In this document: positions 13,193-31,652 of the stretch, in pieces
How positions within the stretch are numbered: position 1 is the first letter of the stretch
How the letters are laid out: each line of letters begins with the position of its first letter
Origin: Candidatus Amesbacteria bacterium RBG_19FT_COMBO_48_16
Lineage (GTDB): Bacteria; Patescibacteriota; Microgenomatia; CAZETR01; Amesbacteraceae
DNA length: 35,959 bases
Reading direction: 5' to 3'
Assembly: GCA_001775555.1 (NCBI GenBank)
Contig: MEXE01000037.1
Span: forward strand, 1 to 35,959
Notes under the pieces: model-generated
Seen by the model: only the letters and a program-made list of their open reading frames with translations
Databases searched by the model: none
What the model was told of the DNA's origin: nothing
Translations under genes and position numbers: made by a program

Positions 13193-13374
13193 AGATTTCA
13201 GAAAGAATTTCTAAAAAAAATAAGCCGCGCCTGGTTGGCGGGGCCAATGTTACTTTACCTAGGGTATTTTACTCACCTGTCAAGTAGTTGTCAATCGAGG
13301 CTAATTACATCTAATTCAGCCTGTTTAATCAGGCTATTTATGAGAAAACAATCCTGGTAAAATACATTACGACC

Positions 13375-13447
13375 GGCCCCATCGTCTAGTGGCCTAGGAC
13401 ACCAGGTTCTCATCCTGGTAACCGGGGTTCAAATCCCCGTGGAGTCA
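13375..13447 (+). tRNA. tRNA-Glu (CUC), copy 1
   Basis: GGCCCCA...CCAGG-TTCTCAT-CCTGG anticodon arm, CGGGG-TTCAAAT-CCCCG T arm, TGGAGTC-A; acceptor stem has a C4xA69 mismatch; no encoded CCA. Confidence 0.9.
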
Positions 13448-13514
13448 CAAAATCCCCTGTTTCCAACCTTTAGAAAAAAGTATAGGTTGATAATTAACAG
13501 AATTTAAACAACTT

Positions 13515-14979: not shown

Positions 14980-15143
14980 ATATACCCATTAAACTGGAAT
15001 TTGCGAAATGGCTTGAAGCCGGAATACCCAGAGAACCCTTTCCAGACGCTGCTGCGTTGGTCTCTTTGGTATCCCTCGCTTTGCTCGTGATGGGTATATA
15101 TCCAGCGTACCGGTTTTGCAAACCTGAGTACGCTGACTATAGT
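14980..15143 (+). repeat. Structured intergenic repeat, copy 1 (full length)
   Basis: ATATACCCAT...ATGGGTATAT outer arms; inner hairpin ATACCCAGAGAACC...GGTCTCTTTGGTAT; tail hairpin AGCGTAC-C-GGTTT-TGC-AAACC-TGA-GTACGCT; ends TATAGT. Confidence 0.9.
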
Positions 15144-15719: not shown

Positions 15720-16078
15720 TCAAAACAATAACTCTTATTGGCATTAGGTCACACTTTTTGGTAAATCATAATATCCATAATGCGGTGGTTCATGCGATTG
15801 CATATCAAAGTCGAGGGCCACAAGTTGGTGGAGTAAGTATCACACACCGGGTGTGAAATGTCGGCTTCTGGCCAAAGCCTCGCGTTTCACGAGCAAATCC
15901 GGGTGGGGTTACCTTTCGGCAAGTTTGTTCTAAATGTAGTCAAAAAGTTTAGTGTGTTTGAAAGACTTTGAAGAATAGTAATGCCCTGATCCACACTCCG
16001 GACTGGAATAAAAATCCGTAAATAGCATAATTGGAACATTGATGACATAGTATATAAATACAAGCTAGAACAAGGAAA

Positions 16079-17353
16079 ATGAAAATCTTATGCAGAATAT
16101 TAATAATAAATATTTTGATATTGGCTTTATTTATTCCTTACCTTGTGTTTGCCGGGAAATCTGCCGCAACGCAGGTAGCGACTCCTGGTGATGCAAATAA
16201 CGATGGACGGGTTGACGGAATAGATTATGTGATATGGTTTAATAATTATGGACAAATTTCTCAAGGAGGCAGTAGTGTCGGAGATTTTAATAACGATACA
16301 AAGATAGACGGAGTGGATTATGTGATATGGTTTAATAATTACGGTTTTGTTGTACCACCCTCGAGTCCAACACCTTCAAAAATTCCAACTTCGACACCGG
16401 CACCATCGTCTTTTCACTCATGTACGGGGCCGGTGGTAACTCTGAGCGGAATCGTTGATCAGTATTATAGAGTAGGTACCGTCGTTAACGGAACGACGTA
16501 TGATTTACGATCCTGGTATTCTAATGCTGTTGGTGTCACAAGCAGCATGGCGTTCAAAGTAGGTTTGGATAACGGGCCGCTTGATTTATGTGTGAAGGGT
16601 GGTGTCGTCAATGGACATATAGATCCGACGTGGGATTGGGCGACAACTCATAATTTTGGGGGTGGCGGGTTAGAAACCTGGTCGAGTCGATACGATTCAA
16701 TGGAATTGGTGCGGATTCATAATGTAGAAGACGGTTGGAAACCCCGGGAATTTCCGGAGTTTGGCAATACCGGTATTATGCAGATGAGATACGCATATAT
16801 GACCGGCATCCGTGATGATTCAATAGAGAATGACGATTTCATGCCCGGTTTTGTCGAAGATAGCCTTTTTGACGGCGTAGACACATTTCTCTCTGAGCAG
16901 AATCAAAGCGGAGGAATACCGACTACTTTGGGGCCGGGTGAGGACCTTAATATTCGTGTTACCCGAAGTTATATTAGACTGTATTCGACCAACAGCAGCG
17001 GGAAGAGTAATCCCGGACGGTGGTTTAAATGGCAACCCCGTGGTACCCAAAATCATAATTTGGTTATTACTGATTCTGTGTTTGCTACTCACGGACCATC
17101 TCCGCGGGATGGCTGGTCTGCTCTCAATTTTCCTGAGGGTACTATTTTTGTCGGGACAAACTATATCCTGTGGTTAGGTACTCCCGGGGGGTATAAAGCG
17201 GTGATTCCGTCCGGTGTCATATTTCTCGAAGGCCAACCCGCACAAGATAAATGGAGCCAGACACGAAACACCTGGTTGACTGCTCACGGTTATGATCCAC
17301 GACCTGTAGATGATTGGAATCCTATGGATGACCCTGTCGTAGCTCCCAGATGA
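16079..17353 (+). CDS. Secreted dockerin-containing protein with predicted beta-helix-like C-terminal domain
   Basis: Signal peptide; two dockerin-type repeats GDANNDGRVDGIDYVIWFNNYG / GDFNNDTKIDGVDYVIWFNNYG; PTP-rich linker; C-terminal region with IRDDSIENDDFMPGFVEDSLFDGVDTFLSEQN. Confidence 0.85.
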   Translation: MKILCRILIINILILALFIPYLVFAGKSAATQVATPGDANNDGRVDGIDYVIWFNNYGQISQGGSSVGDFNNDTKIDGVDYVIWFNNYGFVVPPSSPTPSKIPTSTPAPSSFHSCTGPVVTLSGIVDQYYRVGTVVNGTTYDLRSWYSNAVGVTSSMAFKVGLDNGPLDLCVKGGVVNGHIDPTWDWATTHNFGGGGLETWSSRYDSMELVRIHNVEDGWKPREFPEFGNTGIMQMRYAYMTGIRDDSIENDDFMPGFVEDSLFDGVDTFLSEQNQSGGIPTTLGPGEDLNIRVTRSYIRLYSTNSSGKSNPGRWFKWQPRGTQNHNLVITDSVFATHGPSPRDGWSALNFPEGTIFVGTNYILWLGTPGGYKAVIPSGVIFLEGQPAQDKWSQTRNTWLTAHGYDPRPVDDWNPMDDPVVAPR

Positions 17354-17394: not shown

Positions 17395-17560
17395 ATATAC
17401 CCATTTTAATAGAATTTGTGTTAATGGCTTGAGGCCGAAATACCCAGAGAACCCTTTCCAGACGCTGCCGCGTTGGTCTCTTTGGTATCCCTCGCTTTGC
17501 TCGTGATGGGTATATATCCAGCATATCGGTTTTTGCAAACCTGAGTACGCTGACTATAAT
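17395..17560 (+). repeat. Structured intergenic repeat, copy 2 (full length)
   Basis: Same architecture as 14980-15143 with scattered substitutions; ends TATAAT. Confidence 0.9.
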
Positions 17561-17630
17561 GGAAAGAAGGTTTCATGATCATAAGCAAAGTCGATTAGCA
17601 ATTGAAAAATTGATAAGATTCAGCATGTCC

Positions 17631-17703
17631 GGCGCTATCGTCTAGAGGCCTAGGACACCAGGTTCTCATCCTGGTAACCCCGGTTCGAATCCGGGTAGCG
17701 TCA
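17631..17703 (+). tRNA. tRNA-Glu (CUC), copy 2
   Basis: GGCGCTA...CCAGG-TTCTCAT-CCTGG, CCCGG-TTCGAAT-CCGGG, TAGCGTC-A; no encoded CCA. Confidence 0.93.
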
Positions 17704-17723
17704 CCCTTCGACAAGCTCAGGGT
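17703..17723. repeat. REP-like palindrome ACCCTTCGACAAGCTCAGGGT abutting the tRNA 3' end
   Basis: Same core as 10012-10032; starts at the discriminator base of tRNA-Glu copy 2. Confidence 0.85.
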
Positions 17724-30302: not shown

Positions 30303-30329
30303 TATCACACCTTTAAGGTGTGAAGGCTA
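30303..30329. repeat. 27-bp palindromic repeat copy
   Basis: TATCACACCTTTAAGGTGTGAAGGCTA, identical to 31010-31036. Confidence 0.95.
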
Positions 30330-30338
30330 TCCGGTAAG

Positions 30339-30536
30339 CTAGCGGAGAAGGAGAAGATAGGATAAGAGACAACAAGCAGAGATACCTACTAAACCCAGGC
30401 CTATTTCTAAAGCGTCGGGGCGGACTTTGGCCGGGTAGAGGTATTCGGCGGTATGAAAAATCTGTTTATCTCGAAGGCGTTGTCGCAAATATCCCCGAAT
30501 GCTGTAGACGATGGTTTCCGGACCGGTATACGGCAT
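30339..30536 (-). CDS. Hypothetical small protein with C-terminal hydrophobic segment
   Basis: 65 aa; ...ALEIGLGLVGISACCLLSYLLLLR. Confidence 0.45.
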   Translation of the reverse strand: MPYTGPETIVYSIRGYLRQRLRDKQIFHTAEYLYPAKVRPDALEIGLGLVGISACCLLSYLLLLR

Positions 30537-30546
30537 GGCCGGATTG

Positions 30547-30599
30547 TATCACAAACCATCACACACCCGGTGTGTGATGGTTTCCGGCGTGTGAAGGCT
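30547..30599. repeat. Variant palindromic repeat with nested palindrome
   Basis: TATCACA-[AACCATCACACACC-C-GGTGTGTGATGGTT]-...-TGTGAAGGCT: same outer ends as the 27-bp repeat. Confidence 0.85.
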
Positions 30600-30603
30600 G
30601 GTA

Positions 30604-30963
30604 TTAAAGTTTTAGGAGGACTTTGATGGCTGACAATAAATTTCTCCTCGTCCGAGCGCCGTGGGCGGCAGCCCAACCTCTCATTCTCTCTGAAGAAGCA
30701 CCATAGACCATTGGCTGCATCATAGCTAATAATCCGACTCCTGAGGATACTTTCCCTTCCATCTCCAACTTTGTCACATTCCTGGGTTCCATTAAACAGG
30801 CGTCGGGGTTTTGACTCCGGCAAGCTGTAATACCCTTAACACAAGCATGCGCCTGCTTACCAATACCGCCTTTCTGGCCTAATACTGCTGTCTCCAAATC
30901 GCCGCAAACTTCCGGCATGGGGCACTCCTGGGGAACCGGATAGGAGGATACTTCTCTTGCCAC
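30604..30963 (-). CDS. Hypothetical protein
   Basis: 119 aa ORF, Cys-containing (ECPMPEVCGD, ACVKGITACRS, PDACL); no recognised family. Confidence 0.4.
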   Translation of the reverse strand: MAREVSSYPVPQECPMPEVCGDLETAVLGQKGGIGKQAHACVKGITACRSQNPDACLMEPRNVTKLEMEGKVSSGVGLLAMMQPMVYGASSERMRGWAAAHGARTRRNLLSAIKVLLKL

Positions 30964-31009
30964 AACCTTATTTTACTATTTTTTTGGCAAGACTACAGGT
31001 TAATGAACG

Positions 31010-31036
31010 TATCACACCTTTAAGGTGTGAAGGCTA
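31010..31036. repeat. 27-bp palindromic repeat copy overlapping a stop codon
   Basis: TATCACACCTTTAAGGTGTGAAGGCTA, identical to 30303-30329. Confidence 0.95.
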
Positions 31037-31553: not shown

Positions 31554-31652
31554 GTACACCCATTTTACTGGAATTTGCCTTAATGGCTTGATGCCGAAAT
31601 GGGTGTATATCCAGCGTACCGGTTTTGCAAACCTGAGTACGCTGACTATAGC
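31554..31652 (+). repeat. Structured intergenic repeat, copy 3 (internally deleted)
   Basis: GTACACCCAT...ATGGGTGTAT arms; lacks the ~66-nt middle hairpin; 46-nt tail identical to copy 1. Confidence 0.9.

What the first reader, a model, noticed from the sequence alone, without database searches (positions are those of the whole stretch)
14980..15143. Three-copy structured intergenic repeat family with a compensatory base-pair change
Copies at 14980-15143, 17395-17560 and 31554-31652, all on the + strand. Outer arms ATATACCCAT/ATGGGTATAT in copies 1 and 2 become GTACACCCAT/ATGGGTGTAT in copy 3, so a T-A pair is replaced by C-G and pairing is kept. Full copies add a long inner hairpin (ATACCCAGAGAACC...ACGCTGCTGCGT...GGTCTCTTTGGTAT). 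All carry a tail hairpin AGCGTAC-C-GGTTT-TGC-AAACC-TGA-GTACGCT. Copy 3 lacks the middle hairpin precisely. This suggests selection on fold, as an ncRNA, a regulatory leader, or a hairpin-ended non-autonomous element (IS200/IS605-derived elements are one model).
Basis: partly seen in the sequence, partly recalled or inferred. Interest (0 to 1): 0.76.

Follow-up and report, generated by a model that had tools for sequence, protein, structure and literature searches.

The report
Double-hairpin mobile DNA element (IS630 MITE)
The three repeats are copies of a roughly 97-base "hitch-hiking" DNA element that carries no gene, has ends matching those of IS630-type jumping genes found in other ultra-small Microgenomates bacteria, and has spread to at least 13 places in this genome; it is a new family of a known kind of genomic parasite, not a regulatory RNA.

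Summary
The three copies belong to a dispersed family with at least 13 copies plus fragments in this 0.91-Mb genome (Ca. Amesbacteria relatives, Microgenomates), and structure-conserved relatives occur across the class. The architecture is TATA–hairpin I–TATA–hairpin II–TATA. Covariation is strong (13 of 22 pairs have double changes; 0 of 500 shuffles reach this). The same terminal repeat flanks IS630-family (DDE) transposase genes in other Microgenomates. A matrix built only from those IS630 ends ranks the six window ends 1, 1, 1, 4, 5 and 7 of 71,868 positions. Related genomes, including one of the same genus, lack the element at two orthologous sites, and one copy lies in frame inside a protein gene. 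The IS200/IS605 (HUH/Y1) model fails: four element-bearing genomes have no Y1 transposase and no Y1 gene checked is flanked by the element. Best reading: an IS630-derived MITE, comparable to pneumococcal RUP, moved in trans at TA sites. The long copies carry a 66-nt insert; the short form is the norm. No IS630 transposase was found in this genome, and a base-exact TA duplication was not shown.

The parts
14980..15141 (+). Copy 1, long form: TATA-hairpin I-TATA-hairpin II-TATA, between a GDPD-family phosphodiesterase gene and an FKBP-type PPIase gene
14981..15006 (+). Left terminal repeat of copy 1 (TATACCCATTAAACTGGAATTTGCGA); rank 4 of 71,868 positions with an IS630-end matrix
15116..15141 (-). 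Right terminal repeat of copy 1 (TATAGTCAGCGTACTCAGGTTTGCAA); joint rank 1 of 71,868
15024..15089 (+). 66-nt insert of the long form (extra hairpin ATACCCAGAGAACC..GGTCTCTTTGGTAT plus CCCTCGCTTTGCTCGTG)
   Evidence: alignment; absent in most copies
17395..17558 (+). Copy 2, long form, upstream of tRNA-Glu (17631-17705)
17396..17421 (+). Left terminal repeat of copy 2; rank 5
17533..17558 (-). Right terminal repeat of copy 2; joint rank 1
17440..17505 (+). 66-nt insert of copy 2
31554..31650 (+). Copy 3, short (97-nt) form, between a VIT1-family gene (- strand) and a response-regulator gene (+ strand)
31555..31580 (+). Left terminal repeat of copy 3; rank 7
31625..31650 (-). Right terminal repeat of copy 3; joint rank 1

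Best explanation
[quoted passage not shown] Shown: the element ends in a ~25-bp imperfect terminal inverted repeat (TATACYC-N5-ACTYGAGTTTGCA) that also bounds IS630-family transposase genes in other Microgenomates; copies are dispersed; related genomes lack them at orthologous sites; each terminal repeat is paired with an adjacent inner arm, giving two hairpins around a central TATA. Inferred: an IS630 transposase supplied in trans bound the repeats, excised the ~97-nt unit and put it into TA target sites, duplicating the TA. A 66-nt insert gave a long form that spread as well. The resident transposase is now missing or unassembled, so copies are ageing (at least one is truncated). The hairpins keep pairing while changing sequence; why is unproven (new subfamilies founded as palindromes, hairpin-templated correction during replication, or tolerance of the folded transcript).
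For: Family size: 13 model hits in the own genome at E <= 4e-4, one more at C22, and relatives in 26 of 384 class genomes. Ends: the pattern TATACYCNNNNNACTYGAGTTTGCA (1 mismatch) occurs in 37 of 384 class genomes, and the reversed-pattern control shows none in any genome listed. IS630 link: the G354 ORF (342 aa, NF033545 IS630 219 bits, DDE_3 5.5e-33) is preceded by the repeat, and its contig stops inside the other one. G198 and G247 IS630 genes have the repeat on both sides, ~1.13 kb apart. The IS630-end matrix, built only from other genomes, ranks the window ends 1, 1, 1, 4, 5 and 7 of 71,868. Sites without the element: the same-genus genome G001 joins the same two genes without the C13 copy (TTGATGAAGC-TA-TGGAAA against TTGATGTGGGT-TA[..]TA-TGGAAC); the C15 copy is missing before the same tRNA in G001, G005 and G010. 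In-frame copy of 32 codons in C51, absent from the G004 homologue. Covariation.
Against: No IS630 transposase was found in the own genome, although the assembly is 90% complete in 56 contigs and one copy sits at a contig end. The TA duplication cannot be read base by base because the ends themselves begin with TATA and the comparison genomes have drifted. The window's left end matches the IS630 consensus less well than its right end. The IS630 ends were not folded or tested for a paired inner arm.
Confidence: 0.88

Rival explanations
1. An HUH/Y1 (IS200/IS605 or RAYT/REPIN-type) non-autonomous element: two inverted hairpins excised as single-stranded DNA.
For: Two hairpins in inverted arrangement resemble a REPIN; the own genome has three Y1 genes; no obvious duplication at the borders.
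Against: G226 (single contig), G296, G116 and G354 bear the element without any Y1 gene. R1 found no element at Y1 loci in the family except one ~0.65 kb upstream of a Y1 gene and in front of another gene. Two Y1 genes of this genome are flanked by other palindromes. A 25-bp terminal inverted repeat shared with IS630 is not a Y1 feature.
Confidence: 0.06
2. A structured non-coding RNA or cis-regulatory leader whose fold is under selection.
For: Strong covariation across genera; in several own-genome copies one end lies just upstream of a gene or tRNA.
Against: Neighbours are unrelated (FKBP, tRNA-Glu, response regulator, KsgA-like gene, oxidoreductase, tRNA); related genomes lack it at the same sites; one copy is inside a reading frame; decayed copies exist; no Rfam match. 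Covariation can arise without RNA function.
Confidence: 0.05
3. A mobile promoter: insertion supplies an outward sigma-70-like promoter (TTGCAA-N16-TATAAT) in the terminal repeat.
For: Promoter-like hexamers in copies 1 and 2. Outward promoters in Correia elements are known to me from memory only.
Against: The number of promoter-like sites in the region is no higher than in shuffles (6 against 5.2); copy 3 lacks the match. It would be a by-product of insertion, not an alternative to the MITE reading.
Confidence: 0.15

Closest known systems
RUP (repeat unit of pneumococcus), proposed to be moved by IS630-Spn1
   Same: ~107 bp, non-coding, terminal repeats like those of an IS630 element, TA target, folds strongly if transcribed (PMC2229807, PMC3049150)
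   Different: Different sequence and host phylum; RUP has ~110 copies and its IS630 is resident; here ~14 copies, two hairpin modules around a central TATA, and no resident IS630 found
Correia/NEMIS elements of Neisseria
   Same: Terminal repeats of ~25 bp, TA at the ends, two size classes differing by an internal ~50-bp segment (PMC2229807), as here by 66 nt
   Different: Unrelated sequence; an IS630 counterpart is shown here, whereas PMC2229807 (2007) named RUP as the only bacterial repeat with a known IS counterpart
Rickettsia palindromic elements (RPE)
   Same: Palindromic ~100-150 bp repeats that can lie in frame inside proteins
   Different: Only one in-frame case here; most copies are intergenic; IS630 ends
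REPIN/BIME with RAYT (TnpA-REP)
   Same: Two hairpins in inverted arrangement, small, dispersed
   Different: No Y1 association; tags GTAG/CGTC are not the terminal motif; IS630 terminal repeats instead

Membership tests
IS630-type MITE (RUP-like) | Terminal inverted repeats shared with an IS630-family element | tested here: met
IS630-type MITE (RUP-like) | Insertion at TA with TA duplication | tested here: inconclusive
   Sites without the element fit a single TA but are not base-exact
IS630-type MITE (RUP-like) | Small (<200 bp), no transposase gene, dispersed copies with unrelated flanks | tested here: met
IS630-type MITE (RUP-like) | Sites without the insertion in related genomes | tested here: met
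IS630-type MITE (RUP-like) | Active or recent IS630 source in the same genome (usual, not strictly defining, since sources can be lost) | tested here: not met
   None in the 90%-complete own genome; intact source genes only in other genomes
IS200/IS605 or RAYT/REPIN element | Y1 transposase gene bounded by the same hairpins | tested here: not met
IS200/IS605 or RAYT/REPIN element | No terminal inverted repeat; insertion next to a fixed tetra/pentanucleotide without duplication | tested here: not met
   Terminal inverted repeat present; the duplication part is unresolved
Known RNA family | Match to an Rfam model at the gathering score | tested here: not met
   Only two tRNAs in the window
IS630 family (for the putative source) | DDE_3 transposase over the curated cut-off | tested here: met

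The most novel reading that the evidence does not exclude
The conserved double-hairpin fold is itself needed for movement or survival of the element (for example transposition through a folded single-strand or hairpin intermediate, or a functional folded transcript), so that an IS630-type parasite evolves under RNA-like covariation.
Probability: 0.15. Interest if true: 0.65.

Novelty: new member of a known kind. Interest (0 to 1): 0.42.

Why it matters
MITEs with an identified source family are few in bacteria, and I found no paper in the held library on MITEs in the Candidate Phyla Radiation. A gene-less IS630 hitch-hiker that persists across Microgenomates with ~1-Mb genomes shows that these reduced genomes are still reshaped by non-autonomous transposition, including one in-frame addition of 32 codons to a protein. 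It also warns that covariation in an intergenic family is not by itself proof of a functional RNA.

Tried and rejected
IS200/IS605 or RAYT source: rejected. Regulatory RNA: no Rfam match, unrelated neighbours, related genomes without it. Segmental duplication: similarity stops at element edges. Plasmid collection and viral contigs: no match. Genome-wide exact pattern scan: 9 stretches, of which the four non-Microgenomates ones (Colwellia, Thiohalomonas, two Bacteroidales) lack the tail motif and look like chance. Promoter scan: no enrichment. Some R2 rows are the palindrome read on the other strand or misplaced (L097, L102); they were not counted as evidence. Whether window 30303-31036 hides a decayed Y1 gene: no protein-family match and no convincing coding similarity.

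Full report
Observation. BLAST of each copy against the window shows that similarity begins and ends at the element, which rules out one segmental duplication. Copy 3 has the stated T-A to C-G replacement. The copy without the middle hairpin is the normal form: most copies found are short, and a 66-nt insert (15024-15089 and 17440-17505) marks copies 1 and 2, with a variant in the copy on contig C15.

Family. The window is contig C37 of a 0.91-Mb, 56-contig assembly, 90% complete. BLAST, then a covariance model, found 13 copies in the genome: C37 three times, C51 twice, and C15, C13, C55, C23, C39 (cut at a contig end), C4 (truncated) and C44 (whose two strands both match). A further copy is on C22 and a fragment on C6. 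A broader model found members in 26 of 384 class genomes. Relatives differ strongly in sequence but keep the plan TATA-hairpin I-TATA-hairpin II-TATA, for example L086 with stems ATATGCCCAATGT/ACATTGGGCATAT. On 21 aligned members 92% of cells pair, 13 of 22 pairs show changes on both sides, and none of 500 shuffles reach this; slid structures fall to 23-50% paired. The alignment was fitted to the model, so this leans towards the structure, and related sequences inflate the shuffle test; but the size of the gap is large.

Ends. Comparing members, the left end read inward and the right end read inward are the same sequence: TATACYC-N5-ACTYGAGTTTGCA. As a pattern with one mismatch allowed this occurs in 37 of 384 class genomes, while the reversed control shows none in any genome listed; outside the class it is rare (2 phylum genomes outside the class). 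A terminal inverted repeat points to a DDE transposase rather than an HUH one.

Source. Y1 transposases were tested first: element-bearing genomes G226 (one contig), G296, G116 and G354 have none, and the element is not at Y1 borders. The DDE_3 family has few hits in these 21 genomes, but one, in G354, belongs to an ORF that starts 49 nt after a pattern hit. That ORF is a 342-aa IS630 transposase, and the contig ends inside the opposite repeat (TTGCAAACCTGAGTTAGTT). Its relatives in G198 (65% identical, open) and G247 (interrupted by stops) have the repeat on both sides about 1.13 kb apart, and G087 has it on the side held. In G176 the repeat lies at five contig ends, two of which were read and are followed by the start of a similar reading frame. 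A weight matrix made only from these IS630 ends, all from other genomes, was then run over both strands of the window: the six element ends rank 1, 1, 1, 4, 5 and 7 among 71,868 positions. This is the strongest single test.

Movement. Joined flanks of nine own-genome copies (some only in part) were searched in the family (5,088 bases sent). In G001, of the same genus, the two genes around the C13 copy are joined without it: TTGATGAAGC-TA-TGGAAA against TTGATGTGGGT-TA[element]TA-TGGAAC. The C15 copy is missing in front of the same tRNA in G001, G005 and G010. Both fit a single TA at the site without the element; neither is base-exact. The C51:3287 copy is read through in frame, adding 32 codons near the N-terminus of a protein whose G004 homologue lacks them.

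Mechanism and limits. The best reading is a MITE moved in trans by an IS630 transposase at TA. Shown: ends, dispersal, related sites without the element, source-family link. Inferred: cut-and-paste movement, TA duplication, past presence of the source in this lineage. Not found: an IS630 gene in this genome. The hairpins' covariation is real but its cause is open; I do not take it as proof of an RNA function.

Known relatives. RUP of S. pneumoniae is the closest in kind (IS630-like ends, TA, ~107 bp); Correia elements share the two-size design (PMC2229807, PMC3049150). I found no description of this family in the held library, which is limited to open papers.

Noticed in passing
window 15839-15855 and 30558-30578: Palindrome ATCACACACC(C/G)GGTGTG(TGAT). 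The same palindrome flanks both sides of the Y1 (RAYT-like) gene on contig C6 (L025:1275-1295 and 1968-1988) and occurs at Y1 loci of other genomes (L084, L198): a REP family with its likely enzyme.
   Followed up: partly
window 30303-30329 and 31010-31036: Two identical 27-nt copies of TATCACACCTTTAAGGTGTGAAGGCTA, 707 bp apart; near-identical palindromes flank the Y1 gene at the end of contig C42 (L024). No Y1 gene or family match lies between them in the window.
   Followed up: partly
window 15073-15089 and 17489-17505; L019, L020, L116: The long-form insert ends in CCCTCGCTTTGCTCGTGAT, which resembles another dispersed Amesbacteria repeat (GATCACGAGCGAAGCGAGGGATA) found near tRNA and other genes in relatives.
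   Followed up: partly
window 13355-13448 and 17611-17704: Two tRNA-Glu(CTC) genes 4.3 kb apart, 82% identical over 94 nt.
   Followed up: no
L039:1442-2071 (G000:C51): A 209-aa protein with a proline/lysine-rich linker and a lysozyme-like C-terminus (judged by eye) carries a full MITE in frame near its N-terminus.
   Followed up: partly
L167 (G296:C4:5500-10600): Two copies of the class-wide element lie in inverted orientation about 4.1 kb apart around other genes, as in a composite transposon.
   Followed up: no
window 16187-16344: Tandem 65-nt repeats inside a dockerin-like domain of the ORF at 16079-17353.
   Followed up: no
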